This document shows, in pieces, positions 22,213 to 43,563 of a stretch of 64,000 nucleotides of DNA. Both the position numbers and the translations under genes were made by a program. A model generated the notes under the pieces. It made no database searches. It was not told where the DNA came from and saw only the letters and a program-made list of their open reading frames with translations. Source of the DNA: Geomonas agri (lineage in GTDB: Bacteria; Desulfobacterota; Desulfuromonadia; Geobacterales; Geobacteraceae); assembly GCF_020179605.1 (NCBI RefSeq), contig NZ_JAINZO010000001.1, forward strand, positions 682,001-746,000, read 5' to 3'. Numbering within the stretch: the stretch's first letter is position 1; each line of letters opens with the position of its first letter.

Positions 22213-22214
22213 GG

Positions 22215-23556: not shown

Positions 23557-23559
23557 GTG

Positions 23560-24664: not shown

Positions 24665-24691
24665 GAATAAAATTCCTCCGCCATCCAGCCC

Positions 24692-24712
24692 CCCTCGTAT
24701 CGAGTGAGGGGG
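24692..24712. repeat. Hairpin between the NhaP-type antiporter and mnhE
   Basis: CCCCCTC pairs with GAGGGGG around GTATCGAGT. No T run follows on the minus strand, so read-through from the antiporter into the Mrp genes is likely; it could tune relative expression. Confidence 0.4.
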
Positions 24713-24721
24713 AATCAGGTA

Positions 24722-25954: not shown

Positions 25955-25960
25955 CCCGCG

Positions 25961-28000: not shown

Positions 28001-29874
28001 GACTGGTTCCCTCCTTCCGGCACCGGAATCAGTACCAGCGTCGCGTATCCCTGTAGACGCCAGAATTTCTCCGTGTCGAGCTTCGGCGTGCCGGAACCGC
28101 CGAACTCGATCTTTTCACTGCTCCAAAGGATCTCCCAGGAGGACCCGAGGGGCGGCGCGAGCATCGGTTCCGGGATCGGCACCAGGTGCTGCTCGCGTCC
28201 CAGGTTGACCAGCACCAGGCGCTGCTCGTCCTCGAGGAAATAACGGAGGAGAAAACCCGCCCGTCCCAGGACCGCCCCCTCGATATGACAGGCGTAGCCG
28301 CGGCTGAAGACCGGATCCTCGCGCCGTAGCCGGATCAGGTCGCGGTAGAGCGCGTACACCTTGCCGTGGCGCTCCCTCTCTCTCAGGTCGAGGCGCGACT
28401 GCTGGAAGGTCTCCAGCTCGTAGGGCTTGTCGATGGTATCGATCACCTCGGGCGAATCGATGTTGGTGAACTGTTTCAGGAACTCGATGCGACCGGTATG
28501 GACCTGCTGCGAGATCTCCGGGTTGAGGTCGGCGAAGTAAAGGAAGGGGGAACTGGCGGAGAACTCTTGCCCCTGGAAGATCATCGGGGTTTGGGGGAGG
28601 AGGAACATGAGCGCCGCCATCGCCCGCAGACCGGCCGGGTTGGTGAGCCGGTCGATGCGGATGCCCCAGGCGGAGTTGCCGATCTGGTCGTGGTTCTGGA
28701 TGTAGTTGATGTAGCAGCTGGGGCTGTGGCCCATGGTGGGGGAGCCACGCCGCTTTCCCTGCCAGAAGTAGAACTGCCCCTGGTACAGGTAGCTCCACTT
28801 GGCGCAGGAGATCATCTCCTGGGGAGATCCGTAGTATTCCGAATAGTAGGCGTCGTGGTAACCGGTGAGGGCGACGTGGGCGGTGTGGTGGAAGTCATCG
28901 TTCCAGACCCCGTCCATGCCGAAGCCCCCTCGCTCCCTGGGCTGCAGGCAGCGGAAGTCCTGGTTCTCGTTCTCGGCCACCAGCAGCAGGCGACGCTTGC
29001 CGGCGCGCTCCCGGACCCGGCTGGTGATGTCCCCCAGGATGTGGATCTCGGAGGTGTCGATGATGGCGTGGGTGGCGTCGAAACGCAGGCCGTCGATGTG
29101 AAACTCGTCGATCCAGTAGGCGGCGTTGGCCATGAAGAACTCGCGCACCGGGCCGCACTGCCTGCCGTCGAAATTCATCACCTTGCCCCAGTCGCTTTCC
29201 TTGTCGCCGTAGTAGAAGTCGGAGTAGCGGGCCAGGTAGTTCCCCTCCGGGCCAAAATGGTTGTAGACCACGTCCAGCAGGACGCCCAGCCCCAAGCTGT
29301 GGGCGCGGTCCACGAAGCGGCGCATATCGTCGGGCCTACCGTAAAGACGGGTGGGGGCGAAGTGGTTGACCCCGTCGTAGCCCCAGCCGAACCGACCGGG
29401 AAAGTCGGCCACCGGCATCACCTCGACCAGGGTGATCCCCAGCTCCTTAAGTGCCGGGAGCTGCTCCTCGGCGGCGTGCCAGGTCCCTTCCATGGTGAAT
29501 GTGCCCAGGTGCAGCTCGTAAATCACGTGCCCCTCGCGCTCCACCCCGGGCCACTCCTGGTCGCTCCAGGCAAAATCGTTCGGGTCGATCACCTGGGATG
29601 GGCCGTGCGGGCCTTCGGGCTGGAACCGTGATGCTGGGTCGGGAAAACATTCGCCGCCGTCCAGGCAGTAGCGGTATCGCGAACCGGCACTCGCCTCGCG
29701 GCAGGTGCCGGAAAAGTAGCCACTTTCCTCGGGGGCGAGCACCGTTGCCTGCGGAGCCGGAGTCCCCTCGAGGACCACCTCGACCTCCATGTGTCCCGGC
29801 GCCCAAACCCTGAAATTCACGCCATCCGGTACCACCTCCGCACCGATCGGCATCCTTCTCTGTACCGCGGCCAT
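27997..29874 (-). CDS. treZ: Malto-oligosyltrehalose trehalohydrolase
   Basis: Releases trehalose from maltooligosyl-trehalose (GH13). The 625-residue protein begins with the CBM48-like domain (GAEVVPDGVNFRVWAPGHME), then the barrel: IYELHLGTFTMEGTW, VVYNHFGPEGNYL, DGLRFDATHAI with the nucleophile Asp, LLLVAENENQ with the acid/base Glu and NYIQNHDQIGNSAWG with the transition-state Asp. The ELHLGTFTxEGTW and NHFGPEGNYL blocks are TreZ-specific versus glycogen branching enzymes. The partner TreY is not in this window. First gene of a minus-strand unit running to 20404; GGGGGGACG precedes the ATG. Confidence 0.93.
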   Translation of the reverse strand: MAAVQRRMPIGAEVVPDGVNFRVWAPGHMEVEVVLEGTPAPQATVLAPEESGYFSGTCREASAGSRYRYCLDGGECFPDPASRFQPEGPHGPSQVIDPNDFAWSDQEWPGVEREGHVIYELHLGTFTMEGTWHAAEEQLPALKELGITLVEVMPVADFPGRFGWGYDGVNHFAPTRLYGRPDDMRRFVDRAHSLGLGVLLDVVYNHFGPEGNYLARYSDFYYGDKESDWGKVMNFDGRQCGPVREFFMANAAYWIDEFHIDGLRFDATHAIIDTSEIHILGDITSRVRERAGKRRLLLVAENENQDFRCLQPRERGGFGMDGVWNDDFHHTAHVALTGYHDAYYSEYYGSPQEMISCAKWSYLYQGQFYFWQGKRRGSPTMGHSPSCYINYIQNHDQIGNSAWGIRIDRLTNPAGLRAMAALMFLLPQTPMIFQGQEFSASSPFLYFADLNPEISQQVHTGRIEFLKQFTNIDSPEVIDTIDKPYELETFQQSRLDLRERERHGKVYALYRDLIRLRREDPVFSRGYACHIEGAVLGRAGFLLRYFLEDEQRLVLVNLGREQHLVPIPEPMLAPPLGSSWEILWSSEKIEFGGSGTPKLDTEKFWRLQGYATLVLIPVPEGGNQS

Positions 29875-30208
29875 CGTCCCCCCAATACCCTTCAGTGTCT
29901 GGGAAAATTAACACGCTCTAAAATAACACACTCCGCGAATTTTAAAACCGAAGCGGCGCCGGTCCATCTTCATGTGCCTTTCATTCCCTCGCGCGAACCT
30001 CGCGAATGACGCAACTGTCAGTGGCGGTGGGGGCGGGAACATCCCCCATGTCCGCCATCTTACTGGGGTAAAAAGCGCATTTTTGTATGAACTGGTTTGA
30101 CAGAAAATCCGTCACTGTTAGTATTGAGTTTTGTTAATTTGAATGAATTAACTTTGTACTAATTAGACGACCGCTACCGCAGATATCTCACCCCCCAGGG
30201 AGGATCCT
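29875..30208. other. Divergent intergenic region between treZ and the sugar cluster
   Basis: 334 bases separate two divergent operons. It holds the plus-strand promoter at 30097-30124 and an AT-rich tract (29910-29945, 30120-30170) that presumably includes the treZ promoter, which I cannot place with confidence. Confidence 0.5.
30097..30124 (+). promoter_or_regulatory. Sigma-70 promoter of the sugar-modification cluster
   Basis: TTGACA at 30097-30102 and TAGTAT at 30119-30124 with a 16-base spacer. Predicted leader about 78 bases, AT-rich. It is the only good promoter I find ahead of the nine-gene cluster. Confidence 0.62.
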
Positions 30209-31330
30209 ATGTCAGGGAGCGTTCTTATCACGGGAGGGGCCGGCTTCATCGGTTCCCACCTGGCGGACGAGCTGCTGCGTCACGACTACCGGGTGCGCGT
30301 GCTGGACAGCCTGGTGCCGCAGGTCCACGGTCCCGATGCGGGCCGGCCCGCGTACCTCGACCCCGAGGTCGAACTGATCAAGGGGGACGTGCGGGACCCG
30401 GCGGCAGTGCAAAAGGCGCTGGTCGGCACCGAGGCGGTGTTCCACTTCGCCGCCATGGTCGGGGTGGGGCAGAGCATGTACGAGATCGAGCGCTACACCT
30501 CGGTGAACAACTGTGGCACGGCGGTACTGCTCGAGGCGATGGCGCAGGCACAGGGGGAGAGAAAGCTCATCGTCGCCTCAAGCATGAGCATCTACGGGGA
30601 AGGACGTTACCGGGACGGCAGCGGGGCCTACTACGACGACGTGAAACGGGAGGTCGGGCAGTTGCAGCGGGGGAGCTGGGAGCCGCTACTCAAGGAGAGT
30701 GAGCCGCTCATCCCGGTGCCGACGCCCGAGCAGAAGACGCCATCCCTCGCCTCGGTCTATGCTCTAAGCAAGTACGACCAGGAACGCATGGCGCTCATCG
30801 TCGGGGGGTGCTACCGGATCCCGGTCATTGCCCTGCGCTTTTTCAACGTCTACGGAACCAGGCAGGCTCTCTCCAATCCCTACACTGGGGTATTGGCCAT
30901 CTTCGCCTCCCGCCTCATGAACGGCAATCCGCCCCGCATCTTCGAGGACGGCCGGCAGCAGCGCGACTTCGTCAGCGTGCACGACGTGGTCACCGCCTGC
31001 CGCCTGGCGCTGGGGGTGGACCAGCAGAAACAGCAGCTCTTCAACATAGGTAGCGGCGCCAACATCTCCGTACTGCAGGTGCTGGAGCGTTTCTGCCAAG
31101 TGCTCAATATGGACTCCGTCGAACCCGAGATCACCGGCAGTTACCGCGCCGGCGACATCCGCCACTGCTTCGCCGACATCACCAGCGCCCGCGAGGTCCT
31201 CGGGTACGCCCCCCGGGTCAACTTCGAAGACGGCCTCAGGGAACTGGCGGGGTGGCTGGAAGGGGAAGTGGCGATAGATCGGGTTGCCCAGGCGCACGCC
31301 GAGCTGACCCAGCGGGGGCTGACGCTATGA
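30209..31330 (+). CDS. Extended SDR nucleotide-sugar epimerase/dehydratase (dTDP-rhamnose 4-epimerase-like)
   Basis: A 373-residue cytosolic NAD-dependent enzyme acting on a nucleotide-sugar. NAD motif TGGAGFIGSHLADELL at the N-terminus; VFHFAAMVGVGQSMYE; SSMSIYGEG; the catalytic YALSK (Tyr-x-x-x-Lys); and FFNVYGTRQALSNPYTG, an arrangement resembling dTDP-L-rhamnose 4-epimerases. The insert between the Ser and Tyr motifs (about 60 residues, QLQRGSWEPLLKESEPLIPV) is longer than in simple epimerases. GGGAGGATCCT precedes the ATG. It overlaps the next gene by four bases. Exact substrate unknown. Confidence 0.85.
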   Translation: MSGSVLITGGAGFIGSHLADELLRHDYRVRVLDSLVPQVHGPDAGRPAYLDPEVELIKGDVRDPAAVQKALVGTEAVFHFAAMVGVGQSMYEIERYTSVNNCGTAVLLEAMAQAQGERKLIVASSMSIYGEGRYRDGSGAYYDDVKREVGQLQRGSWEPLLKESEPLIPVPTPEQKTPSLASVYALSKYDQERMALIVGGCYRIPVIALRFFNVYGTRQALSNPYTGVLAIFASRLMNGNPPRIFEDGRQQRDFVSVHDVVTACRLALGVDQQKQQLFNIGSGANISVLQVLERFCQVLNMDSVEPEITGSYRAGDIRHCFADITSAREVLGYAPRVNFEDGLRELAGWLEGEVAIDRVAQAHAELTQRGLTL

Positions 31331-33390
31331 GCTGGCCAGTCGAATCGCTACCGGACAAGTTCGGCATGGTCGAGTGGTTCCGTCCCGGGGAACGGGGGCG
31401 GGTGGAGCGGGTGCTCGCCGACATGAAGAAGCTCGGAGCGAAGCGTCTGCGCACCGGCATCTCCTGGGCTGACTGGTACACCACTGAGGGGCGGGAGTGG
31501 TACGACTGGCTGGTGCCGCGCCTGTCCAGCGAGGTTGAGTTGCTTCCTTGCGTGCTCTACACGCCCCCGTCCATCGGCCTGGAGCCCAAGACCTCCTCGC
31601 CCCCCAAGAGGGCCCTCGACTACGCCGATTTCATCGACCTCTTTATCACCTCCTTCGGGGACCACTTCGAGTACGTGGAGCTCTGGAACGAGCCCAACAA
31701 CTTGAGCGAATGGGACTGGACCCTCGACCCGCACTGGACCGGGTTCGGCGAGATGATCGGGGCTGCGGCGTACTGGGCCAGGAAGCGGGGCAAGAAGACC
31801 GTGCTGGGCGGGATGAGCCCCATTGACGGGCACTGGCTCTGCCGCATGTTCGACCTGGGCGTCATGGAGTACATCGACGTGGTGGGGATCCACGGCTTTC
31901 CTGACATCTTCGACTACACCTGGAAGGGGTGGGCGCGCAACGTCTCCATGGTGCGGGAGATCCTGGACCAGCATGACTCTCCCTGCGACATCTGGGTTAC
32001 CGAGGCCGGCTTCTCCACCTGGCAGCACGACGAGTTCAAGCAGGCCCGGGTCTTCCTGGAGTTCCTGGAGGCGCCGGCGCAGCGCCTGTACTGGTACGGC
32101 GCCGACGACCTGGATCCGGGACTGGCCGCGGTGGACCGGTTCCACCTGGACGAGCGCGAGTACTACTTCGGATTCCGCAAGGCGGACGGCACACCCAAGC
32201 TGCTCTACCGCTTGCTCGAGGAGGGGAAGGTGACGGCGATAAAAAAGGTCGGGGAAGTGGCGACGGCGGCCCCGGTACGTACAAGCTCGGCCGGGGACAA
32301 GGCGATCCTGGTTACCGGGGGGGCGGGCTTCATCGGCACTAACCTGGTGCACCACCTGGCCCGCGAGGGGAAAAGGGTCATCGTCTACGACAACCTGTCT
32401 CGCCCGGGCGTGGAGGAGAACCTGCTCTGGCTCAAGGAGAACTGCGGCGACCGGCTCGAGGTGAGGATCGCGGATACCCGGAACCACCTGGCGCTGCACG
32501 ACGCCATCGCCCAGTGCTCCCACGTGTACCACTTCGCTGCCCAGGTCGCGGTTACCACCAGCATCGACAACCCCGCCGCCGACTTCGCCATCAACGGGCT
32601 GGGGACCTTCGCGCTACTGGAGGCGATCCGCACCGCGAAAGAGCGCCCGTCGCTCTTGTTCACCTCGACCAACAAGGTGTACGGCGGCATCGAGGGGTGT
32701 CGCATCCGCAAAAACGGCAGTCGGTACCAGCCGCTCGACCCGGAGCTCAGGCGCTACGGTTTCGGTGAGGGGACCCCGCTCGATTTCCTGAGCCCCTACG
32801 GCTGCTCCAAGGGGTGCGCCGACCAATACGTGCTCGACTACTCGCGCAGCTTCGGCATCAACGCTGCCGTGTTCCGCATGAGCTGCATCTACGGCCCGCA
32901 CCAGTACGGCACCGAGGACCAGGGATGGGTGGCCCACTTTGCCATCCGGACACTGAAGGGTGAGCCGATCACCCTCTATGGCGACGGCTACCAGGTGCGC
33001 GACCTCCTCTTCGTCGAGGACCTGGTGGACGCCATGTGCCGCGCCGGCGCGGTGATGCCGAAGATCTCCGGCCAGGCCTTCAACATCGGGGGCGGCCCAG
33101 AGCGCGCCGCGAGCCTCTTGGAGCTTTTGGACCTGCTGCGCGACCTGCACGGCTCCCTGCCGCAGGTCAGCTTCGACGAGTGGCGAACCGGGGACCAGCG
33201 CTACTACATCTCCGACACCAGGAAGTTCGCGGCGGCGACCGGGTGGGCCCCGCGCCATTCCGTTCGGGAAGGAGTGGAGCGCCTGTACCGGTGGCTGTGC
33301 CAGTCGCTGGGAACATCGCCGCGCGGCGCCGAGACGGCTGAAGAGAAGAAGAGAAAAAGCTACCCGGCTCCGGGTGTGGAGGCGATGTGA
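31327..33390 (+). CDS. Fusion of a clan GH-A glycosidase-like domain with a CDP-tyvelose/paratose-type 2-epimerase
   Basis: A 687-residue two-domain protein. Residues 1-300 look like a TIM-barrel retaining glycosidase: VELWNEPNNLSEW puts the acid/base Glu at 122 and DIWVTEAGFSTWQ puts the nucleophile Glu at 226, with GGMSPIDGHW and DVVGIHGFPD between. After a linker (about 305-325) a full extended SDR starts with VTGGAGFIGTNL (331-340); TSTNKVYGG (447-454) is the CDP-tyvelose/CDP-paratose 2-epimerase signature; YGCSK (491-495) is the catalytic pair; SCIYGPHQYGTEDQGWVAHF follows. No signal peptide, so the glycosidase half works in the cytosol. Start at ATG 31327 overlaps the previous stop as ATGA. 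The fusion is clear in-frame; what it acts on is unknown. Confidence 0.82.
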   Translation: MSWPVESLPDKFGMVEWFRPGERGRVERVLADMKKLGAKRLRTGISWADWYTTEGREWYDWLVPRLSSEVELLPCVLYTPPSIGLEPKTSSPPKRALDYADFIDLFITSFGDHFEYVELWNEPNNLSEWDWTLDPHWTGFGEMIGAAAYWARKRGKKTVLGGMSPIDGHWLCRMFDLGVMEYIDVVGIHGFPDIFDYTWKGWARNVSMVREILDQHDSPCDIWVTEAGFSTWQHDEFKQARVFLEFLEAPAQRLYWYGADDLDPGLAAVDRFHLDEREYYFGFRKADGTPKLLYRLLEEGKVTAIKKVGEVATAAPVRTSSAGDKAILVTGGAGFIGTNLVHHLAREGKRVIVYDNLSRPGVEENLLWLKENCGDRLEVRIADTRNHLALHDAIAQCSHVYHFAAQVAVTTSIDNPAADFAINGLGTFALLEAIRTAKERPSLLFTSTNKVYGGIEGCRIRKNGSRYQPLDPELRRYGFGEGTPLDFLSPYGCSKGCADQYVLDYSRSFGINAAVFRMSCIYGPHQYGTEDQGWVAHFAIRTLKGEPITLYGDGYQVRDLLFVEDLVDAMCRAGAVMPKISGQAFNIGGGPERAASLLELLDLLRDLHGSLPQVSFDEWRTGDQRYYISDTRKFAAATGWAPRHSVREGVERLYRWLCQSLGTSPRGAETAEEKKRKSYPAPGVEAM

Positions 33391-34361
33391 TGAGCAAGAT
33401 GATGCAGGCTGCGGTGATCACCGGCCCGGGTGAGGCCGCCGTGCAACTGGTGCCTCGTCCGGAACCGCAGGAGGGAGAGGTGTTGGTTGCCCTGGAGGGG
33501 TGCGGCGTCTGCGCCTCGAACCTCCCCTTGTGGCAGGGGCGCAGCTGGTTCAATTACCCGGCCCTTCCGGGTGCCCCCGGGCACGAAGGGTGGGGGAGGG
33601 TGCAGGCGCTGGGCGAAGGAGTTCAGGGAGTGAAGATCGGCGACCGGGTCACCTTTCTCTCCTACAACGCCTACGCTCAATACGACATGGTACGGCACGA
33701 CGCCCTGGTGAAGATCCCGGCCTCGCTGGACGGGCAGCCTTTCCCGGGAGAGCCGGTCGGCTGCGCCATGAACGTGTTCCGCCGTTCCGCCATCGAACCG
33801 GGGCAGACCGTGGCCCTGATTGGGGCCGGGTTCCTGGGTGCCATCTTCACAGCGCTCGCTACGGCGCGGGGCGCGCACGTGATCGCCCTCTCGCGCCGCG
33901 GCTTCGCCCTGGAGCTCGCCAAGCGCTGCGGCGCCGAGGAGACCGTGGTCCTGGATGACCACCAGCGGGTCATGGACCGGGTGCGGCAGCTGGCCGGAGA
34001 GCGTGGCTGCGATCGGGTTGTGGAAGCCACCGGATACCAGTGGCCGCTGGATCTGGCCGGGGAACTGGTGCGGGAAGGGGGCAAGATCGTCATCGCCGGC
34101 TACCACCAGGACGGGCTGCGCCAGGTCAACGTCCAGCTCTGGAACTGGAAGGGGATCGACGTCATCAACGCGCACGAGCGCTACCCGCGCGTCTACCTCG
34201 AGGGGATGCGCGCCGGCATCGCCGCCGTGGAGTCGCGGATGTTTCCGCTCAAGGAGCTGATCACCCACAGTTTCAGCCTCGACGAACTGGGACGCGCCTA
34301 CCAGGCGCTGGAAGGGCGTCCCGACGGCTTCCTGAAAGGGATGATCCGTATCGAGCATTAG
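33390..34361 (+). CDS. Zinc-type MDR alcohol/sugar dehydrogenase
   Basis: A 323-residue medium-chain dehydrogenase. Catalytic zinc ligands are in GCGVCASNLPLW (Cys) and PGHEGWGRV (His-Glu). The usual four-Cys structural zinc loop is absent: the region after GDRVTFLS is short. The Rossmann motif is ALIGAGFLGAIFTALA. Probably oxidises or reduces a sugar hydroxyl using NAD(P). Start at ATG 33390, sharing its A with the preceding TGA stop, with GGAGG seven bases upstream. Its position suggests it works with the neighbouring Gfo/Idh oxidoreductase on one sugar intermediate. Confidence 0.87.
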   Translation: MSKMMQAAVITGPGEAAVQLVPRPEPQEGEVLVALEGCGVCASNLPLWQGRSWFNYPALPGAPGHEGWGRVQALGEGVQGVKIGDRVTFLSYNAYAQYDMVRHDALVKIPASLDGQPFPGEPVGCAMNVFRRSAIEPGQTVALIGAGFLGAIFTALATARGAHVIALSRRGFALELAKRCGAEETVVLDDHQRVMDRVRQLAGERGCDRVVEATGYQWPLDLAGELVREGGKIVIAGYHQDGLRQVNVQLWNWKGIDVINAHERYPRVYLEGMRAGIAAVESRMFPLKELITHSFSLDELGRAYQALEGRPDGFLKGMIRIEH

Positions 34362-34374
34362 GAAAGGGGAAGTA

Positions 34375-35385
34375 ATGAGGAAGAAACAGGCACTACCGAG
34401 ACTTGGCTTTCTCGGCACCGGCTGGATCGGCCGGCACCGGATGGAGGCCATCGTGAAAAGCGGGGAGGCCGAGGTGGCCGCCATCGCGGACCTTTGCCCT
34501 GACAACGCCCGGGAGGCGGGGGAACTCGCGCCCGGGGCGCCGATCATGGAGTCGATGGAGGAACTCCTCGAACTCGACCTGGACGGCGTGGTGATTGCGA
34601 CGCCCAGCGCGGGCCATTGTTACCAGGCGCTGCGCGCCCTCGACCGCGGCCTGGCCGTGTTCTGCCAGAAGCCGCTGGGGAGAAACGCCGAAGAGGCGCA
34701 GCTCGTAGTTGGGGCGGCGCGGGCGGTGAACCGGCTCCTGGGGGTCGATTTCTCCTACCGTTACACCGACGCCATCCAGAAGATGCACCAGCTGGTGAGT
34801 TCGGGCGAACTGGGGCAGGTCTACGCCGCCGACCTCGTCTTCCACAACGCCTACGGTCCCGACAAGGACTGGTTCTACGACCCGGAACTCTCCGGGGGAG
34901 GCTGCCTGATGGACCTGGGAAGCCACCTGGTCGATCTTGCCCTCTGGTTCTTCGGATACCCCGAGGTGCGCAGCGTGTCCAGTTCCATCTTCGCGGGCGG
35001 CGAGCGGCTCAAGGTCGGCTCCGGCAAGGTCGAGGACTACGCGGTGGTTTCCCTGGTGCTTGAGGATGGGCACGCGGTGCGGGTGGCCTGTTCCTGGAAT
35101 GTCTCGGCGGGACGCGATGCCGTCATCGAGTCGAGCTTCTACGGGACCCACGGCGGCGTGAGCTTCAAGAATGTGCAGGGCTCCTTCTACGACTTCGTGG
35201 CTGAACGCTTCCGTGGCACCACCTCCGAGACCATCGCCGCTCCACCGGACGAGTGGGGGGGACGCTGCGCCGTGGCCTGGGCGCGCCAGTTGAGATTAGG
35301 AGGCAACGGCTTCGATCCTCAGGCGGAGCAGTTGGTCCGGGTGGCCGAGGTCCTCGACGCCGCCTACGGCAGGTCATCAAGGTAA
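34375..35385 (+). CDS. Gfo/Idh/MocA-family oxidoreductase
   Basis: A 336-residue NAD(P)-dependent sugar oxidoreductase. N-terminal Rossmann motif GFLGTGWIGRHRMEAI, the QKPLGRNAEEA segment where most family members have EKP (Lys retained, Glu replaced by Gln), and the catalytic GGGCLMDLGSHLVDLALWF with the conserved Asp-x-x-x-His pair. Thirteen bases after the dehydrogenase; AGGAAAGGGGAAGTA precedes the ATG. Typical substrates are inositols, hexoses or UDP-sugars; not resolved here. Confidence 0.88.
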   Translation: MRKKQALPRLGFLGTGWIGRHRMEAIVKSGEAEVAAIADLCPDNAREAGELAPGAPIMESMEELLELDLDGVVIATPSAGHCYQALRALDRGLAVFCQKPLGRNAEEAQLVVGAARAVNRLLGVDFSYRYTDAIQKMHQLVSSGELGQVYAADLVFHNAYGPDKDWFYDPELSGGGCLMDLGSHLVDLALWFFGYPEVRSVSSSIFAGGERLKVGSGKVEDYAVVSLVLEDGHAVRVACSWNVSAGRDAVIESSFYGTHGGVSFKNVQGSFYDFVAERFRGTTSETIAAPPDEWGGRCAVAWARQLRLGGNGFDPQAEQLVRVAEVLDAAYGRSSR

Positions 35386-35589
35386 GCCGGTAATCAGATA
35401 CACCAATACAGCGATAAGTCGATACGTCGCGCCGGGCGGCGCTTCAGCACTACCATCTCGGGGAGATCCGGGCATGGGAACGGCTGTCGCTTCGCCTCGT
35501 GCGGCCTGTTCAACTCATGAGATGACAGTGGCTTAGTGGCTAATATTTCGAGTGATTATTTAACAGGACTGCAACCGGGATTTTTATTC

Positions 35590-36723
35590 ATGAATAAAGT
35601 TGTTTCTCCCACAACAGCAAGCGATGCTCCCCCTGTCGGGGCACCGGGACTGATACTGATGACTGCGGATCCCATCGGCGGGGTCTGGAACTACGTCTTG
35701 GAACTCTGCCGCGGCCTGGCCCCTCACGGGGTGCAGATCGCGCTCGCCACCATGGGGCGCCCGCTCTCACCGGGACAGCACCGCGAGGTGGCCGACGAGG
35801 CCAACGTCACCCTCTACGAGAGCGGCTATCGGCTGGAGTGGATGGAAGATCCGTGGGCCGACGTGGAGAAGAGCGGCGAGTGGCTCCTTTCCCTTGAGGC
35901 GGAGCTGAAACCGGACCTGGTGCACCTGAACGGCTACGCCCACGCCGCGCTCCCCTGGCGCCGCCCCTGCCTCGTGGTGGCCCACTCCTGCGTTCTTTCC
36001 TGGTGGGAGGCGGTGCGCGGCGAGCAGGCGCCGCAGCGGCTGGACGATTACCGGGTTCGGGTGTCCCGGGGGCTCGCCGCCGCGGATCTGGTGGCCGCCC
36101 CTTCTACGGCGATGCTCGATTGCATCAGGAGGCTCTACTTGCCGCTCCCCGAAGCGCAAGTGATCTACAACGCCCGCGGCCGCACCCGCTTTCGTCCCGG
36201 CATGAAGGAAGACTTCATCCTGTCGGTGGGGCGGGTCTGGGACGAGGCCAAGAACATCGGCGCCCTGGTGCGCAACGCCTACGACCTCCCCTGGCCGGTG
36301 TATGTGGCGGGGGAGATCAACCAGCCCGGCGGTGGGGCTGCCAACGTCGACGGGGTGAACCGGCTCGGCTTCCTGGCGCCGGAATCGCTGGCCCCCTGGT
36401 ATGCTGCCGCTGCCATCTACGTCCTCCCGGCGCGTTACGAACCCTTCGGACTCACCGTCCTCGAGGCGGCCCAGTCCGGTTGCGCCCTGGTCCTCGGCGA
36501 CATCCCCAGCCTGCGCGAGCTCTGGGACGGGGCGGCCCTGTTCGTCGACCCGGAGTCGGCGATGGACCTGCAAAAGCAGTTGCGCGCGCTCTGCGCCGAC
36601 CGCAGCCGCCAGGCGAGCCTCAGGGAGAAGGCGCTGGAGCGCAGCCGTAGTTTCACCGCCGCCAAGATGACCGCCGGGTATCTCTCCCTGTACAGCCGGC
36701 TCCGTGGTGGCAGGCCTGTATAA
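35590..36723 (+). CDS. GT4-family glycosyltransferase
   Basis: A cytosolic retaining GT-B glycosyltransferase, about 377 residues from the ATG at 35590. N-terminal acceptor domain with the GGVWNYVLELCRGLAPHGV loop, then the donor domain with LSVGRVWDEAKNI and the EPFGLTVLE (E-x7-E) motif that contacts the nucleotide-sugar. The start is uncertain: a GTG at 35536 in the same frame would add 18 residues, and neither has a clear ribosome site. It is 150-200 bases after the oxidoreductase, so a second promoter is possible but none is convincing. Confidence 0.85.
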   Translation: MNKVVSPTTASDAPPVGAPGLILMTADPIGGVWNYVLELCRGLAPHGVQIALATMGRPLSPGQHREVADEANVTLYESGYRLEWMEDPWADVEKSGEWLLSLEAELKPDLVHLNGYAHAALPWRRPCLVVAHSCVLSWWEAVRGEQAPQRLDDYRVRVSRGLAAADLVAAPSTAMLDCIRRLYLPLPEAQVIYNARGRTRFRPGMKEDFILSVGRVWDEAKNIGALVRNAYDLPWPVYVAGEINQPGGGAANVDGVNRLGFLAPESLAPWYAAAAIYVLPARYEPFGLTVLEAAQSGCALVLGDIPSLRELWDGAALFVDPESAMDLQKQLRALCADRSRQASLREKALERSRSFTAAKMTAGYLSLYSRLRGGRPV

Positions 36724-36771
36724 AGATGCAGTGAAGGATCCCCCTCCCTAACCCTCCCCCTCCGGGGGAGG

Positions 36772-36963
36772 GGATAATGGGAAGCCGGTGCCGGTATCCT
36801 CCTCCCCCCGGAGGGGTTGGGATGATGTGAAGCTGATGCCGGTAACCTCCTCCCCTCGGAGGGGCTGGGATGATGGGAAGCTGGTGCCGGTATCCTCATC
36901 CCTTCGGAGGGGCTGGGATAATGGGAAGCCCGTGCCGGTATCCTCCTCCCCCCGGAGGGGGGA
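36772..36963. repeat. Four exact-period 48-bp tandem repeats
   Basis: Units begin at 36772, 36820, 36868 and 36916, each starting GGAT(A/G)ATG and containing GTGCCGGTATCCTCCTCCC then CGGAGGGG, which folds into a hairpin. The period is exactly 48, so open frames run through it on both strands (16-residue repeats). A half unit (CCCTCCGGGGGAGG) precedes the array. No spacers, so it is not CRISPR. It sits between two glycosyltransferase genes. Confidence 0.85.
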
Positions 36964-37012
36964 GGTCGGGAGGTCGAGAGGGGGGAAATCAACTTGGAGG
37001 GCACGCTGACCG

Positions 37013-38110
37013 ATGCGCATCGTGATGTTTTACCACTCCATCCTTTCGGACTGGAACCATGGCAACGCCCATTTCCTGCGCGGCATCGTCACCGAACTGG
37101 GGCAGCTTGGGCACGAGGTGACGGTCTATGAGCCGGAGAATGGCTGGAGCTACAGCAACATGCTGCGCGACAGCGGCGATGCGGCCGTGCGCGGCTTCGA
37201 GCGCGCCTATCCCGGCCTCACCGGTACCCGCTACCTGCTCGATGAACTGGACCTGGACCGGGCCCTGTTCGGCGCGGATCTCGTCATCGTGCACGAGTGG
37301 AGCGACCACGAGCTGGTCCGGCGCCTGGGGGGGCATCGCAAAAGCGGCGGCAGCTACCGGCTGCTGTTCCACGATACCCACCACAGAAGCGTCACCGACG
37401 AAGAGTCCATGGCAGCCTACGACCTTTCCGGCTTTGACGGCGTGCTGGCCTACGGTGCAAGGATTCGGGAGATCTACCTGGCCCGTGGCTGGGCCGAGCG
37501 GGCCTGGCTGTGGCACGAGGCGGCGGACGTGCGGGTGTTCCGGCCGATGCAGTCGCCTGACAAGGTGGGAGACGTGGTCTGGATCGGCAACTGGGGCGAC
37601 GACGAGCGCAGCCAGGAGATCCGGGAGTTCTTCATTGAGCCGGTGCGCCGGCTGCATCTGAAAGGGGTGGTGTACGGCGTGCGCTACCCGAAGCAGGCGC
37701 TACAGCTTTTGGCCGAGGCGGGCATCGGCTACGGTGGCTGGCTCCCGAACTTCGAGGTGCCCCGGGTGTTCAGTCGGTTCCGGCTCACGGTTCACATCCC
37801 GCGCCGCCCTTACGTGGAGGCCCTGCCCGGCATCCCCACCATCCGTCCCTTCGAGGCGTTGGCGTGCGGCATCCCGCTGGTCTCGGCGCCCTGGGTCGAC
37901 AGCGACCGGCTTTTTACCGGCGGCGTCGACCTCCTCTACGCCCGGGACCGGAAGGAGATGGAGTGGCAGATGCAGAGCCTGCTGCACGACCCTGTGCTGG
38001 CCAGGAGCCTTGCCGAGCACGGCAGGGAGACCATCCTAGCCCGGCACACCTGCCGCCACCGCATGGAGGAGCTGCTGGCCATCTGCAGCGAGCTCGGCAT
38101 AAAGCAGTAG
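37013..38110 (+). CDS. CgeB-like glycosyltransferase, paralogue 1
   Basis: A 365-residue protein with a two-domain GT-B layout. N-terminus MRIVMFYHSILSDWNHGNAHF followed by LRGIVTELGQLGHEVTVYEPE; HEWSDHELV and LLFHDTHHRS in the first domain; a second domain starting WIGNWGDDERSQEI and ending with TIRPFEALACGIPLVSAPW and a C-terminal helix, the usual CgeB/spore-maturation glycosyltransferase pattern. Same N-terminal pattern as the two next genes. Cytosolic, no signal. It follows the tandem repeats; donor and acceptor unknown. Confidence 0.8.
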   Translation: MRIVMFYHSILSDWNHGNAHFLRGIVTELGQLGHEVTVYEPENGWSYSNMLRDSGDAAVRGFERAYPGLTGTRYLLDELDLDRALFGADLVIVHEWSDHELVRRLGGHRKSGGSYRLLFHDTHHRSVTDEESMAAYDLSGFDGVLAYGARIREIYLARGWAERAWLWHEAADVRVFRPMQSPDKVGDVVWIGNWGDDERSQEIREFFIEPVRRLHLKGVVYGVRYPKQALQLLAEAGIGYGGWLPNFEVPRVFSRFRLTVHIPRRPYVEALPGIPTIRPFEALACGIPLVSAPWVDSDRLFTGGVDLLYARDRKEMEWQMQSLLHDPVLARSLAEHGRETILARHTCRHRMEELLAICSELGIKQ

Positions 38111-38166
38111 TGGGTATGTCCTGGTAACTTCGGGTGCTGGTAACTTCAGGATGCACGTGAACCAGA

Positions 38167-38206
38167 GTTACCCCCCTTGTGAAAGGGGGGACAGGGGGGA
38201 TTTGCT
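38167..38206 (+). repeat. Dispersed palindromic repeat, core copy
   Basis: Core CCCCCCTTGTGAAAGGGGGG followed by ACAGGGGGGATTTGC. Faces the full copy at 38252. Confidence 0.65.
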
Positions 38207-38251
38207 TTTACCGCACCCAGCAGCCTCTCCTCCGGACAAAAGGTTCCCAAG

Positions 38252-38315
38252 GCAAATCCCCTCTGTCTCCCCTTCGCAAAGGGGAGGACGCGGGGGCTAG
38301 TGCTGCGCTTCGTAG
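38252..38315 (-). repeat. Dispersed 64-bp palindromic repeat, full copy 2
   Basis: Reverse orientation: GCAAATCCCCTCTGTCTCCCC, the hairpin core with TTCGCAAAGGGGAGG, then ACGCGGG and the terminal GCTGCGCTTCGTAG. Confidence 0.75.
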
Positions 38316-38419
38316 CAGCAGATAGGCTTTCCGCTGCAACTCGGCAGCAGATAGGTTTCCTGCTGAAAATCGCAGCGATAAGATCGCGCTTCAAATCTCT
38401 CTTTTAAGAAAGGAACCCC

Positions 38420-39529
38420 ATGGCTGCCCCTCTCTCCATCGCCTTCTTCGCCTCGAGCCTGGTCTCCGCCTACTGGAACGGCGCCGCCACCTACTACCGC
38501 GGCATGGTCCGGGCGCTCTCACGCCTGGGACACCGCATCACCTTCTACGAACCAGACGCCTACGACCGGCAGGCGCACCGGGACATCGAGGACCCCGAGT
38601 GGGCCACCGTGGTGGTCTACCCGGCCACCGAAGAGGGGGTGCTGCGCTCCCTGGAAGCGGCCAGGGGCTCCGACCTGGTCATCAAGGCGAGCGGGGTCGG
38701 GGTCTTCGACGAGCTGCTGGAACTCGAGGTGCTGCGCCTGAAGCGGCCCGGGACCCAAGTCATCTTCTGGGATGTCGACGCGCCGGCCACGCTGGAGCGG
38801 ATCGGCAGCGACGTGCGCGACCCGTTCCGCCCCCTGATCCCGCAGTACGACCTGGTGCTCACCTACGGCGGCGGCGACCCCATCGTGCGCGCCTACCGCG
38901 GCTTCGGCGCCCGCAACTGCATCCCCATCTACAACGCGCTTGACCCTGACACCCACTACCCGGTCCCGCCCGAGGCGCGGCTCAAGGCGGACCTCTCGTT
39001 CCTGGGCAACCGCCTGCCGGACCGCGAGCGCCGGGTCGACGAGTTCTTCCTCGCCGTCGCGAACAAGCTACCCAACCGGAGCTTCCTGCTGGCTGGCAGC
39101 GGCTGGAACGACAAGGCGCGCTCGGGCAACGTCCGCTATCTTGGGCACCTGGGGACCGGCGATCACAACGCTTTCAACTGCAGCGCCATGGCCGTTCTCA
39201 ACGTTAGCCGCGACGGGATGGCGCGCAATGGCTTCTCCCCGGCCACCCGCGTTTTCGAGGCGGCCGGCGCCGGCGCCTGCATGATCACCGACCACTGGGA
39301 GGGGATCGAATACTTTTTCGAGCCGGAGCGGGAGATCTGTGTCGCACGCAACGGGGACGAGGTGGCGCAGATCCTGGAGCGACTCACTCCGTCTGTTGCG
39401 GCGGCCATGGGGGTGCGGGCGCTGGCGCGGGTGCGGGCACACCACACCTACGCGCACCGCGCAAAACAGTTCCAGGAGATCTTTGCCGCCGGCCCGGTGC
39501 CGCAAGCCTACATCGGGGGGGCACCATGA
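38420..39529 (+). CDS. CgeB-like glycosyltransferase, paralogue 2
   Basis: A 369-residue GT-B-like protein. N-terminus IAFFASSLVSAYWNGAATYY then RGMVRALSRLGHRITFYEPD, matching the neighbouring paralogues; WDVDAPATLERI, LVLTYGGGDPIV; second domain LSFLGNRLPDRERRVDEFF; FSPATRVFEAAGAGACMITD is the donor-site block; GIEYFFEPEREI and a final HHTYAHRAKQF helix. AAGAAAGGAACCCC precedes the ATG. It overlaps the third paralogue by four bases. Confidence 0.82.
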   Translation: MAAPLSIAFFASSLVSAYWNGAATYYRGMVRALSRLGHRITFYEPDAYDRQAHRDIEDPEWATVVVYPATEEGVLRSLEAARGSDLVIKASGVGVFDELLELEVLRLKRPGTQVIFWDVDAPATLERIGSDVRDPFRPLIPQYDLVLTYGGGDPIVRAYRGFGARNCIPIYNALDPDTHYPVPPEARLKADLSFLGNRLPDRERRVDEFFLAVANKLPNRSFLLAGSGWNDKARSGNVRYLGHLGTGDHNAFNCSAMAVLNVSRDGMARNGFSPATRVFEAAGAGACMITDHWEGIEYFFEPEREICVARNGDEVAQILERLTPSVAAAMGVRALARVRAHHTYAHRAKQFQEIFAAGPVPQAYIGGAP

Positions 39530-40581
39530 AAATCGTCGTCTTCGGCCTGTCCATCACCTCGTCCTGGGGCAACGGCCACGCCACCACCTACCGCGGGCTG
39601 CTGCGCGAAATGGACCGGCGGGGGCACGAAATCCTGTTCCTGGAGCGCGACGCCATCTGGTACGAGGCCCACCGCGACCTCCCCGAGCCCCCCTTCTGCA
39701 ACACGCTGATCTACAAGTCGCTGGACGAGCTCTTTGCGGAATACGGTCCCGAGATCTGCGACGCCGACTGTGTCATCGTTGGCTCTTACGTCTACCAGGG
39801 CATCGAGGTGGGCAAGTGGGTCAGCAAACACGCCAGGGGGATCAAGGCCTTCTACGACATCGACACACCCGTGACGCTGGCTGCGCTGGACCGGGGCGAG
39901 TGCCAGTACCTGAGCGAGGATCTGATACCCTGCTACGACCTCTACCTTTCCTTCACCGGCGGACCGACCCTGGACCACATCGAGCGCCGCTACGGCTCAA
40001 GGGCGGCTCGCCCCCTGTACTGCTCGGTCGATCCCATGGTGCACTACCCGATGCAGATCACACCGCGCTGGGATCTGGGCTACCTGGGGACCTACAGCCG
40101 TGACCGCCAGCCCGGCCTGGTTCAGCTGCTGTGCCAGCCGGCCGCGTCCTGGGAAAAGGGGCGCTTCGTGGTCGCTGGCGCCCAGTACCCCTCAGAGCTC
40201 AAGTGGTCCAAGAACACGCACCGGATCGAGCATTTGCCGCCGGAGTGCCACAGCGAATTTTACAGTTCCCAGCGCTTTACCCTGAACCTGACCAGGAAGC
40301 AGATGCAGCTCGCCGGTTACTCCCCCAGTGTGCGCCTCTTCGAGGCCGCCGCCTGCGCCGTCCCCATCGTGAGCGATCACTGGCCTGGACTGGAGCAGTT
40401 CTTTGTGCCGGGCAAGGAGATCCTGCTCGCCTCCGGGAGCCAGGAGATGCTGCGCATCCTGCAGCGTTTCCCCGACGAGGCGCGCCGCGCCATCGGCGAG
40501 CGTGCCCGCGCCCGTGTAATGCAGTCCCACTCCGCCTCTTGCCGCGCCGAGGAGCTCGAGGAATACCTGACCACGCTGTAA
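39526..40581 (+). CDS. CgeB-like glycosyltransferase, paralogue 3
   Basis: A 351-residue member of the same family: MKIVVFGLSITSSWGNGHAT then TYRGLLREMDRRGHEILFLER; AFYDIDTPVTLAAL; YLSFTGGPTLDHIE; second domain LGYLGTYSRDRQP; YSPSVRLFEAAACAVPIVSD and GLEQFFVPGKEILL. Closest by eye to paralogue 2 (shared EAHRD and donor-site blocks). ATGA overlap with the previous gene. Cytosolic; transfers an unknown sugar. Confidence 0.82.
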   Translation: MKIVVFGLSITSSWGNGHATTYRGLLREMDRRGHEILFLERDAIWYEAHRDLPEPPFCNTLIYKSLDELFAEYGPEICDADCVIVGSYVYQGIEVGKWVSKHARGIKAFYDIDTPVTLAALDRGECQYLSEDLIPCYDLYLSFTGGPTLDHIERRYGSRAARPLYCSVDPMVHYPMQITPRWDLGYLGTYSRDRQPGLVQLLCQPAASWEKGRFVVAGAQYPSELKWSKNTHRIEHLPPECHSEFYSSQRFTLNLTRKQMQLAGYSPSVRLFEAAACAVPIVSDHWPGLEQFFVPGKEILLASGSQEMLRILQRFPDEARRAIGERARARVMQSHSASCRAEELEEYLTTL

Positions 40582-40594
40582 GGAGAAAGAACGG

Positions 40595-41374
40595 ATGACG
40601 CACGCCAAGGCGAGAACGCTGGAAGACGACATCAAGGAACTGTCCCCCTGGTTCCACAACCTGCACCTGCCCGACGGGACGGAGACAGCCCCGGACCACT
40701 TCCTGGGGGACTTCCCCAGCTTCAAGTGGCGTGAGATATCGGGCTGCATCCCCGAGGACCTGACCGGGTGGAGTGCCCTCGACATCGGCTGCAACGCGGG
40801 CTTTTACTCATTCGAACTGGCGCGCCGCGGTGCCCGGGTGCTTGGTATAGACTGCGACAACCATTACCTGGACCAGGCCAACTGGGCTGCGGCGCAGTAC
40901 GGTTTGCAAAGCCTGGTGGAGTTTCGGCAGATGCAGGTTTATGACCTGGCGCGGGTCAAGGGAAAGTTCGACCTGGTACTTTTCATGGGGGTGTTCTACC
41001 ACCTGCGCTACCCGCTGCTGGCGCTCGACATCGTGGCGCAGAAGACTGCAGGGATGATGCTGTTCCAGACCATCACCATGCCCGGCCGCGCTGTCGCCGG
41101 ACAGCACGACTTCTGGATCAACGAGCGCGACGCCCTGCACGACGCGGGGTGGCCCAAGATGGCATTCATCGAAGAGCGCTTCGCCGGGGACCCGACCAAC
41201 TGGTGGATCGCCAACCACGCCGGCGTCGAGGCCATGCTCCGCTCGGCGGGGCTCAAGATTGCCGGGCACCCCGGGGACGAGATCTATCTCTGTCACCCCG
41301 ACCTGGAGCATCCTTCCTGCATGACTACCTGGAACCGTTCGGAATACCTGTCAGCCACCAACGCCGGTGAGTGA
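40595..41374 (+). CDS. SAM-dependent methyltransferase (CmoB/DUF1698-like)
   Basis: A 259-residue class I methyltransferase. SAM site LDIGCNAGFYSFELARRGAR with GIDCDNHYLDQA (acidic ribose contact), then DLVLFMGVFYHLRYPLLALD, and a C-terminal WWIANHAGVEAMLRSAGLKI. The core resembles the tRNA wobble-uridine CmoB/DUF1698 branch, but the genomic setting behind three glycosyltransferases suggests O-methylation of a sugar or glycan. I recall that related methyltransferases are found with CgeB-like genes in other bacteria; that is from memory. AAGGAGAAAGAACGG precedes the ATG. Last gene of the cluster. Confidence 0.83.
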   Translation: MTHAKARTLEDDIKELSPWFHNLHLPDGTETAPDHFLGDFPSFKWREISGCIPEDLTGWSALDIGCNAGFYSFELARRGARVLGIDCDNHYLDQANWAAAQYGLQSLVEFRQMQVYDLARVKGKFDLVLFMGVFYHLRYPLLALDIVAQKTAGMMLFQTITMPGRAVAGQHDFWINERDALHDAGWPKMAFIEERFAGDPTNWWIANHAGVEAMLRSAGLKIAGHPGDEIYLCHPDLEHPSCMTTWNRSEYLSATNAGE

Positions 41375-41629: not shown

Positions 41630-42442
41630 TTGAGTCGTAGCGCAAAACACGGCATAGAGCTCGAAGGGGCTCTCTGGTTTCACAAGGATGAGCAGAAGTT
41701 CCTGGGACTGGACCGGATCGCGCTGCTACAGAAGATCGACGAGTTGGGCTCCATTACCAAGGCGGCCAAGGCCGTCGGTATCAGCTACAAGAACGCCTGG
41801 GACCTGGTCAACATGATCAACAACCTCGCGGAAAAGCCGCTGGTGGAACGGGTGACCGGCGGCAGGGGAGGCGGGGGGACGACCCTCACCGCCTACGGTA
41901 AGGAAGTGGTCAAGCAGTACGGCGTACTCCAGGAGGAGCATCGCAGGTTCCTGGAGAACCTTGAGGGACGGCTGGGCGACAGCGCCAGCCTGTACCAACT
42001 TTTGCGGAGGATATCCATGAAAGTAAGTGCCCGTAACGTGTTGTCCGGGACCATCACCAAGATAACCAAGGGTGTGGTGAACGCAGAGGTGACCCTGGCG
42101 CTCACCGGCGGCGCGCCGCTGGTCGCCGTGATCACCAACGGTGCCGTTGAGAATCTCGCCCTTAAGGAAGGGGGCTCCGCCTACGCCATCATCAAGGCCA
42201 GCTCGGTCATGGTAGGCACCGACCTGCACGACGCCAAGATCAGCGCCCGCAACGTCATGTGTGGCACCGTGGTCAAGATCGTGGAAGGGCCTGTGTCCAC
42301 CGAGGTCGACGTCGAGGTGGGTGGCGGCAACACCATCAGTGCCGTCATCACCCACGAAAGCGGCACGAGCCTCGACCTTAAGGTCGGCGCCCACGCCTGC
42401 ACCCTGTTCAAGGCATCCAGCGTAATCCTTGGGGTTAGTTGA
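41630..42442 (+). CDS. modE: ModE-type molybdate/tungstate-responsive regulator
   Basis: A 270-residue DNA-binding regulator. Residues 1-115 are a LysR-like winged helix (IALLQKIDELGSITKAAKAV, SYKNAWDLVNMINNL, ERVTGGRGGGGTTLTAYGKE) as in ModE. Residues about 128-270 are two tandem Mop/TOBE domains (SARNVLSGTITKITKGVVNA and SARNVMCGTVVKIVEGPVS) that bind oxyanions. Start is TTG 41630, nine bases after GAGG. The following tupABC-like transporter and the upstream operator support a role in tungstate/molybdate homeostasis. Confidence 0.9.
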   Translation: MSRSAKHGIELEGALWFHKDEQKFLGLDRIALLQKIDELGSITKAAKAVGISYKNAWDLVNMINNLAEKPLVERVTGGRGGGGTTLTAYGKEVVKQYGVLQEEHRRFLENLEGRLGDSASLYQLLRRISMKVSARNVLSGTITKITKGVVNAEVTLALTGGAPLVAVITNGAVENLALKEGGSAYAIIKASSVMVGTDLHDAKISARNVMCGTVVKIVEGPVSTEVDVEVGGGNTISAVITHESGTSLDLKVGAHACTLFKASSVILGVS

Positions 42443-42487
42443 AATAAGGGAGGGGGCCACATCCAATCCCGGATGATCCGGAATGAC

Positions 42488-42516
42488 AAGGGGGCGGTGC
42501 GCCGTTCCCCTTTTTT
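42488..42516 (+). terminator. Terminator after modE
   Basis: AAGGGG pairs with CCCCTT, with an inner CGG/CCG pair around TGCG, followed by TTTTTT. It separates modE from tupA. Confidence 0.8.
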
Positions 42517-42542
42517 AGGCTACCCGCTGTAGCTGAAGCACC

Positions 42543-42562
42543 ATAACGGTCGACACCGTAAC
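42543..42562. promoter_or_regulatory. Inverted repeat upstream of tupA
   Basis: ACGGT and ACCGT flank CGAC, within ATAACGGT...ACCGTAAC. Located 30 bases before the tupA ATG. It could be a regulator site, but it is not a clear match to the ModE palindrome. Confidence 0.3.
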
Positions 42563-42591
42563 AGGATAAACATCATAAAAGGAGTTAGACG

Positions 42592-43458: not shown

Positions 43459-43460
43459 AA

Positions 43461-43523
43461 GCAAATCCCCCTGTCCCCCCTTTCGCAAAGGGGGGACGTC
43501 AGGTCACATGCTGCGCTTCGTGG
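43461..43523 (-). repeat. Dispersed 64-bp palindromic repeat, full copy 3
   Basis: GCAAATCCCCCTGTCCCCC, core with TTTCGCAAAGGGGGG, ACGTCAGGTCACATGCTGCG, ending CTTCGTGG. Lies between tupA and tupB inside the operon. Confidence 0.75.
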
Positions 43524-43563
43524 CTGAGCACCCCCTGATCGCCCCATTCACGGAGGAAGCTGA

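What the first reader, a model, noticed from the sequence alone, without database searches (positions are those of the whole stretch)
30209..41374. Uncharacterised nine-gene sugar-modification and glycosyltransfer cluster
Seen: on one strand lie an SDR epimerase, a GH-A/epimerase fusion, a zinc dehydrogenase, a Gfo/Idh/MocA oxidoreductase, a GT4 enzyme, three CgeB-like glycosyltransferases and a methyltransferase, mostly with overlaps of 1-4 bases or 13-base gaps, behind one good promoter. Known: each family acts on nucleotide-sugars or glycans. Inference: the first four make a rare (perhaps deoxy or branched) sugar, the four transferases build a short glycan, the methyltransferase caps it. 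No flippase, polymerase, acyl carrier or export gene is present, so the product is not an ordinary O-antigen; a glycosylated small molecule, glycolipid or protein is possible.
Basis: partly seen in the sequence, partly recalled or inferred. Interest (0 to 1): 0.85.

Follow-up and report, generated by a model that had tools for sequence, protein, structure and literature searches.

The report
Widespread nine-gene oligosaccharide assembly line
Nine neighbouring bacterial genes form a biosynthetic set, found in nearly the same order in many bacterial phyla, that very probably builds a defined, methyl-capped short sugar chain whose structure and purpose have not been worked out.

Summary
In detail: nine co-directional ORFs at the stated coordinates in a Geomonas-like genome. 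The same nine genes recur in the same order in Geomonas, many Bacteroidota and a distant member of the phylum. The core (GT4 plus three distinct PF13524/CgeB-like transferases) is complete in 79 of 84 loci from at least 13 phyla and in 24 of 24 further loci.

Three refinements. (1) The 'GH-epimerase' is a distant PslG-like barrel fused to a CDP-tyvelose-2-epimerase-type enzyme. (2) The zinc-dehydrogenase/Gfo-Idh module and a B12-radical-SAM enzyme (TIGR04295) exclude each other: 31 loci with the latter, 72 with the former, none with both, of 108. (3) The GH, where it stands alone, is usually a circular permutant. Inositol-1-phosphate synthase is linked in 27 of 108 loci, yet the window's genome has none.

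Best reading: a patchily distributed pathway making one fixed O-methylated oligosaccharide or glycoside. Product, acceptor and role are inferred. NCBIfam holds models for two of its families; the held papers I searched gave no description of the cluster.

The parts
30097..30124 (+). sigma-70-like promoter candidate (TTGACA N16 TAGTAT, extended TG)
   Evidence: consensus match only
30209..31330 (+). S: extended-SDR nucleotide-sugar epimerase (GalE/4-epimerase-like)
31327..33390 (+). H-E fusion: N-terminal distant PslG-like (beta/alpha)8 glycosidase domain with both catalytic Glu motifs (NEP, TEAG), C-terminal CDP-tyvelose-2-epimerase-type SDR
   Evidence: start ATG 31327 overlaps the previous stop by 4 bases
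33387..34361 (+). Z: zinc-dependent polyol/alcohol dehydrogenase
34375..35385 (+). O: Gfo/Idh/MocA oxidoreductase, best solved match DgpA
35536..36723 (+). 4: GT4-family glycosyltransferase
36753..36992 (+). 48-base tandem repeat with palindromic core in the GT4-CgeB1 gap (not part of the coding system)
37013..38110 (+). a: PF13524 (CgeB-like) glycosyltransferase 1
38173..38284 (+). 36-base inverted repeat in the CgeB1-CgeB2 gap (not part of the coding system)
38420..39529 (+). b: PF13524 (CgeB-like) glycosyltransferase 2; the marker used for the wide searches
39526..40581 (+). c: PF13524 (CgeB-like) glycosyltransferase 3
40595..41374 (+). M: TIGR04290-family SAM methyltransferase

Best explanation
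The nine genes are one biosynthetic operon, patchily distributed over many phyla, that makes a single, defined short glycan in the cytosol. Inferred steps: S and the E domain convert a nucleotide-activated hexose by NAD-dependent epimerisation (E at C2, as in CDP-glucose to CDP-mannose). Z plus O, or in other lineages one B12-radical-SAM enzyme, carry out an equivalent redox or stereochemical change on a sugar or on the acceptor. GT4 starts the chain and the three different PF13524 transferases each add one residue in a fixed order. The TIGR04290 enzyme O-methylates and so caps it. The PslG-like glycosidase trims, proofreads or recycles intermediates. Shown: gene content, order, mutual exclusion, family placement, catalytic motifs. 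Inferred: every reaction, the order of transfer, the cytosolic location, and any protective or surface role.
For: Same order of all nine genes in L035 at 46-65% identity and in named Geomonas, Pontibacter, Hymenobacter and others (in Rufibacter with an insertion before M). 4-a-b-c all present in 79 of 84 and 24 of 24 loci, each a separate orthologue rather than a variable set. 13 phylum groups on an 83-row tree. Rare within other phyla: at E<=1e-120, 2 of 292, 6 of 297, 14 of 398 and 8 of 301 genomes (these counts include genomes whose loci I already held); 26 of 117 in the window's own order at 1e-60, 24 of them below 1e-120. E domain: PDB 1orr 3.6e-112 and 9rl0 9.2e-111, next family 7e-49; triad and TNK segment invariant in 9 rows (read against the passages). 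H fused to E, or separate, in the same clusters. TIGR04290 above cut-off.
Against: No reaction or product is known. Of three aromatic residues named for CDP binding in TaTyvE, one (Trp210) is His215 in all 9 E rows aligned, so the nucleotide or substrate may differ. S, Z and O score below the cut-off of every NCBIfam model listed for them (25 of 32 shown for S). An ABCB-type exporter is linked in L047, L078, L080, L085 and L113, the others 49-67% identical to that of L078, which suits export at least there. M was found in 64 of 84 loci only, some cut by contig ends, so methylation may be dispensable. The 80 named loci are the best-scoring of 580 and lean to close relatives; the tree mostly groups by phylum (16 changes, 12 the minimum), so old spread with losses is as good a reading of the patchiness as recent transfer.
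Confidence: 0.5

Rival explanations
1. A surface or exported glycan (glycolipid, exopolysaccharide unit or spore-crust-like coat) whose lipid carrier and exporter are encoded elsewhere in most genomes.
For: An ABCB-type exporter, nearest to glucan exporters and MsbA but below cut-off for all 25 of 182 models shown, sits beside the cluster in L047, L078, L080, L085 and L113. The GH domain's best solved relative is PslG, an exopolysaccharide enzyme (recalled). CgeB of Bacillus acts on the spore surface (recalled).
Against: I saw no Wzx, Wzy, initiating phosphoglycosyltransferase or polysaccharide export gene among the 40 recurrent neighbour families listed, not all of them identified. The best match to that exporter in the window's genome is only 39% identical. 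O-antigen loci vary between strains (recalled), whereas this set is fixed across phyla.
Confidence: 0.25
2. An inositol-based glycoside: inositol (or its phosphate) is the acceptor or the substrate of Z/O or the radical-SAM enzyme, and the transferases build on it.
For: Inositol-1-phosphate synthase genes of two dissimilar types are linked to the cluster in 17 of 84 and 10 of 24 loci, in Pseudomonadota, Verrucomicrobiota, Myxococcota, Bacteroidota and (by the search group) Acidobacteriota. Z and O rank inosose or inositol dehydrogenases among their nearest NCBIfam models, far below cut-off.
Against: The window's genome has no PF01658 match, and 13 of 35 other cluster-bearing genomes searched have none (36 were asked for, L056 was not held). 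Import would be needed there.
Confidence: 0.15
3. Protein glycosylation: the transferases decorate a specific protein.
For: Soluble transferases without a lipid carrier can glycosylate proteins (recalled; no call bears on it).
Against: No recurrent candidate acceptor protein noticed among neighbour families; a dedicated GH in the operon would be unusual for this (judgement).
Confidence: 0.08
4. Several independent sugar genes that merely tend to cluster.
For: Three intergenic gaps of 150-309 bases in the window.
Against: Conserved order across 13 phylum groups and mutual exclusion of modules.
Confidence: 0.02

Closest known systems
TIGR04290 (meth_Rta_06860) and TIGR04295 (B12_rSAM_oligo), NCBIfam hypothetical equivalogs
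   Same: The window's methyltransferase is a TIGR04290 member; the alternative module of relatives is TIGR04295 (one protein scanned). The model name suggests that curators linked the family to oligosaccharides.
   Different: These are protein families without a named pathway or product; the window's genome has no TIGR04295 match above cut-off. No held paper contains either accession.
CDP-tyvelose 2-epimerase (1ORR; TaTyvE, 9RL0)
   Same: Sequence, fold and catalytic triad of the E domain.
   Different: Fused to a glycosidase barrel; CDP-contacting Trp210 replaced by His; VAM segment reads VAV.
Mycobacterial 3-O-methylmannose polysaccharide (MMP) cluster
   Same: Small cluster of a glycosyltransferase, methyltransferases and a hydrolase, conserved arrangement, scattered distribution (PMC9883506, passages seen).
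   Different: MMP has one mannosyltransferase and two methyltransferases; here four non-identical transferases, epimerases and redox enzymes. Homology of the enzymes was not tested.
PslG
   Same: Best solved relative of the GH domain, E 8.9e-7, and of the stand-alone form, 5.3e-7; that it is a GH39-type endoglycosidase is recalled.
   Different: Distant; the fusion and the circular permutation are not seen in PslG, which matches the fused form nearly end to end but the stand-alone form over one part only.

Membership tests
TIGR04290 methyltransferase | whole-protein score above the curated cut-off of 300 bits | tested here: met
   368.5 bits
CDP-tyvelose/paratose 2-epimerase (E domain) | closest sequence and fold match is a TyvE | tested here: met
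   1orr 3.6e-112, 9rl0 9.2e-111; Foldseek 1orr TMt 0.91, 43% identity
CDP-tyvelose/paratose 2-epimerase (E domain) | catalytic Thr-Tyr-Lys triad and TNK segment | tested here: met
   invariant T126-N127-K128, Y169, K173 in A7, against residues named
CDP-tyvelose/paratose 2-epimerase (E domain) | CDP-contacting Trp207, Trp210, Phe211 | tested here: not met
   Trp207 and Phe211 kept, Trp210 is His215 in all 9 rows; so it is called TyvE-like, not a CDP-tyvelose epimerase
PF13524 (CgeB-like) glycosyltransferases | score above Pfam gathering cut-off | tested here: met
   125.7, 136.0, 124.3 bits against 25
CgeB spore-crust system | sporulation context | tested here: inconclusive
   most hosts are not known as endospore formers (recalled); no sporulation family was noticed among the neighbour families listed
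O-antigen/capsule locus | flippase, polymerase or ABC polysaccharide export with initiating transferase | tested here: inconclusive
   none among 8 flanking window genes scanned and none noticed among recurrent neighbour families; the rest of the window and unidentified neighbours were not all scanned
GH39-type glycosidase (H domain) | assignment to a curated Pfam GH family | tested here: not met
   no GH family for the window protein; 2 of 27 relatives hit PF11790 weakly
GH39-type glycosidase (H domain) | two catalytic Glu motifs of clan GH-A | tested here: met
   NEP and TEAG-type motifs; the motif meaning is recalled
MMP-type intracellular methylated polysaccharide | product is a cytosolic O-methylated glycan | not testable with these tools
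   needs chemistry
Inositol-dependent pathway | host can make inositol-1-phosphate | tested here: not met
   no PF01658 in the window's genome

The most novel reading that the evidence does not exclude
A previously undescribed, phylum-spanning small glycan, assembled by a fixed GT4-PF13524x3 relay, in which one chemical step is done interchangeably by a two-enzyme dehydrogenase/reductase module or by a B12-radical-SAM enzyme (a non-homologous exchange made at least six times), and which in several lineages is built on inositol as a stress-protective solute or glycolipid.
Probability: 0.2. Interest if true: 0.85.

Novelty: new variant of a known kind. Interest (0 to 1): 0.62.

Why it matters
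A biosynthetic set so conserved in order, yet scattered over at least 13 phyla, implies one useful product shared by unrelated bacteria, many of them from soil, desert crust or sediment (habitats recalled from genus names). The exchange of a dehydrogenase module for a B12-radical-SAM enzyme gives a natural way to learn what TIGR04295 does: whichever reaction Z and O perform should be its reaction or its functional substitute. It would also assign a function to a CgeB-like transferase relay and to a GH barrel that exists as a fusion and as a circular permutant.

Tried and rejected
Inositol as a universal building block: attractive from linked Ino1 genes, rejected as universal because the window's genome and 13 of 35 other cluster genomes lack PF01658. 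Foldseek of the permuted barrel gave poor sequential matches (TMq 0.19-0.52 in the 50 rows shown), as expected for a permutant; it neither proves nor disproves it. Search for a common stress partner: 101 flanking proteins (of 151 that picked from 32 loci; 140 printed) showed no Pfam family in more than 4 members (25 of 114 families shown). A stress role therefore rests only on host habitats (recalled) and on the window's own neighbours (antiporter-like genes, TreZ, a debranching enzyme), and is not claimed as shown. Phage-family scan of two CgeB-like proteins: nothing. Literature on the cluster: (listings and abstract starts; only 20 of 61, 15 of 8,618 and 10 of 151,745 rows seen) gave no paper on it; most subscription papers are not held. 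sought analogues. The Ramlibacter genome paper PMC3164672 (passages) has no Rta_068 gene number in its main text. BtrN as a radical-SAM dehydrogenase was seen in passages of PMC10991966; its zinc-enzyme counterpart is recalled only.

Rows and limits of the counts. In the exclusion test a zinc dehydrogenase of 25-26% identity in L033 and L034, a weak distant radical-SAM hit in L043 and a 28% Gfo hit in L065 were not counted (thresholds R>=40%, Z>=38%, O>=33%). In the second set five of the ten Z/O loci (Chloroflexota group) are only 33-42% identical in the hits counted; with a 45% threshold 5 remain and still none has both. L075 and L112 were left out of the tree. Loci cut by contig ends were kept in all denominators. 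The tree is the quick LG kind with 20 of 80 inner branches open. L032-L035 were found through the methyltransferase, the other loci through CgeB2, so presence of those two genes is not independent of sampling. Counts of permuted GH rest on motif patterns: 20 of 22 h copies in the first set and 11 of 20 in the second had both motifs, all permuted; 39 of 46 H copies of the first set had both, all canonical; the 2 H copies of the second set were unresolved.

Full report
Observation. The window is part of a 4.68 Mb genome whose nearest named relatives at this locus are Geomonas species (93% identity over three proteins to Geomonas paludis). The junctions are -4, -4, +13, +150, +289, +309, -4, +13 bases with the fusion starting at ATG 31327. 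One promoter-like site precedes the first gene. G+C is 65.7% inside and 61.6% in the rest of the window.

Conservation. A search for the methyltransferase model TIGR04290 found 5 of 297 genomes of the phylum above its cut-off, the window's own included. One of them (L035) has all nine genes in the same order at 46-65% identity. Their titles include Geomonas, Citrifermentans, Pontibacter, Rufibacter, Hymenobacter, Dyadobacter, Ramlibacter, Variovorax, Sorangium, Opitutus, cyanobacteria such as Symplocastrum, Mojavia and Kastovskya, and Chloroflexi, Acidobacteria, Armatimonadaceae, Gemmatimonadaceae, Phycisphaerales and Nitrospirae bins. Reading every locus with the window's proteins gives the order S-(H)E-[ZO or R]-4-a-b-c-(N)-M again and again. 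In 84 loci (these 80 plus L032-L035): 4-a-b-c complete in 79, S in 72, E in 69, M in 64. A second set of 24 loci, new genomes found in three of four searches of other phyla, has 4-a-b-c in 24, E in 22, M in 22, S in 19, there with a more rearranged order. Within other phyla the set is rare (2 of 292, 6 of 297, 14 of 398, 8 of 301; genomes already held are counted). The tree of 4+a+b needs 16 changes for 13 phylum labels where 12 is the minimum, so frequent transfer between phyla is not seen in the sampled part; transfer long ago, or losses, would explain the patchiness.

A module that is swapped. In 55 of 84 loci Z and O are present, mostly in the slot between E and GT4; in 17 that slot holds TIGR04295, a B12-binding radical-SAM protein (605 bits against a cut-off of 400 for the one scanned); 5 have Z alone, 2 O alone, 5 neither. 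In the second set 14 have TIGR04295, 7 ZO and 3 Z alone, the Z/O genes often placed elsewhere in the locus. None of 108 has both at the thresholds (expected if independent 12.5 and 5.8; hypergeometric 1e-13 and 5e-7, not corrected for kinship); a stricter threshold leaves the result unchanged. On the tree at least six exchanges are needed. The simplest inference is that both modules serve the same step, though they could also give two versions of the product.

The fusion. The C-terminal half of the second protein is a CDP-tyvelose-2-epimerase-type enzyme: PDB 1orr 3.6e-112 and 9rl0 9.2e-111, the next family 7e-49; in the predicted model (pLDDT 82.7, pTM 0.83) it matches 1orr with TM 0.91 over that chain. 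Papers on the Thermodesulfatator enzyme (PMC7851689 and PMC13098431, passages only) name Thr124-Tyr164-Lys168, the TNK segment and CDP contacts Trp207, Trp210, Phe211. All are kept except Trp210, which is His in all nine rows. The N-terminal half has no Pfam GH family; its profile finds PslG at 8.9e-7 and it keeps NEP and TEAG-type glutamates.

A circular permutant. In clusters where the epimerase is not fused, a stand-alone GH often lies nearby. In 31 of 42 such 'h' copies both motifs were found, and in all 31 NEP precedes LRTGxSWA; in 39 of 48 'H' copies both were found, and in all 39 the order is the reverse. Three stand-alone H copies (L035, L077, L107) are canonical. Local alignments pair h about 2-190 with H about 117-305 and h 195-294 with H 12-115 (four h against three H). 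The predicted h model has eight strands in that order (best pTM 0.85; the five models range from pLDDT 64 to 83). The profile of h matches PslG only from its residue 132 on.

Accessory genes. Inositol-1-phosphate synthases of two dissimilar types are linked in 17 of 84 and 10 of 24 loci. But PF01658 is absent from the window's genome and from 13 of 35 other cluster genomes. A nucleotidyltransferase occurs in 23 of 108 loci, in 22 of these with a GH that best matches the permuted form. A PIG-L deacetylase, a second GT4 and a GNAT enzyme accompany five or six of the first 84 loci. An ABCB-type exporter sits beside five loci; more distant ABC hits in others were not counted.

Mechanism. From these families: two epimerases (and in some loci a nucleotidyltransferase) prepare nucleotide sugars; the Z/O or radical-SAM module makes a redox or stereochemical change (O's best solved match is DgpA, which oxidises glycosides at C3, recalled); four non-identical transferases then make a fixed short chain, because the set of transferases does not vary the way O-antigen loci do; the methyltransferase caps it; the glycosidase trims or recycles, as MmpH does for the mycobacterial methylmannose polysaccharide (PMC9883506, passages). 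Only gene-level facts are shown; the chemistry is inferred.

Known or new. NCBIfam already holds TIGR04290 and TIGR04295 as hypothetical equivalogs, so curators had seen parts of this. Searches of the held library (long lists only partly seen) found no description of the cluster or its product; much of the literature is not held. I therefore call it a new variant of a known kind, glycan assembly clusters, with an unknown product.

Noticed in passing
L032:9476-10363 (-), L052:1233-2117 (-), L060:1341-2276 (-), L090:15397-16284 (+) and others: The stand-alone form of the cluster's PslG-like barrel is a natural circular permutant that starts at the strand bearing the acid/base Glu motif.
   Followed up: yes
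L047, L078, L080, L085, L113: An ABCB-type (glucan exporter/MsbA-like) transporter is linked to the cluster in two phyla; it may be the exporter.
   Followed up: partly
L084:2022-3230 (-), L110:13171-14580 (+), L095:13511-14833 (-): Two dissimilar types of inositol-1-phosphate synthase are linked to the cluster in different phyla.
   Followed up: yes
window 36753-36992 and 38173-38284: A 48-base tandem repeat with palindromic core and a 36-base inverted repeat fill two gaps inside the operon.
   Followed up: no
L056:6572-7666 (+), also L047, L057, L069: A gene that looks like a DNA topoisomerase IB (recalled; no NCBIfam hit) lies beside the cluster, in L056 inside it.
   Followed up: no
L034:3001-4746 (-), also L032, L033, L090, L094, L123: A protein family of about 580 residues with no Pfam or NCBIfam hit recurs near the cluster.
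   Followed up: no
window 20404-29874 (-): Antiporter-like genes, a glycogen debranching enzyme and malto-oligosyltrehalose trehalohydrolase lie divergently upstream, which looks like an osmotic-adaptation neighbourhood.
   Followed up: partly
window 41630-45359 (+): A ModE-like regulator and a tungstate-type ABC transporter (all below NCBIfam equivalog cut-offs) follow the cluster.
   Followed up: partly
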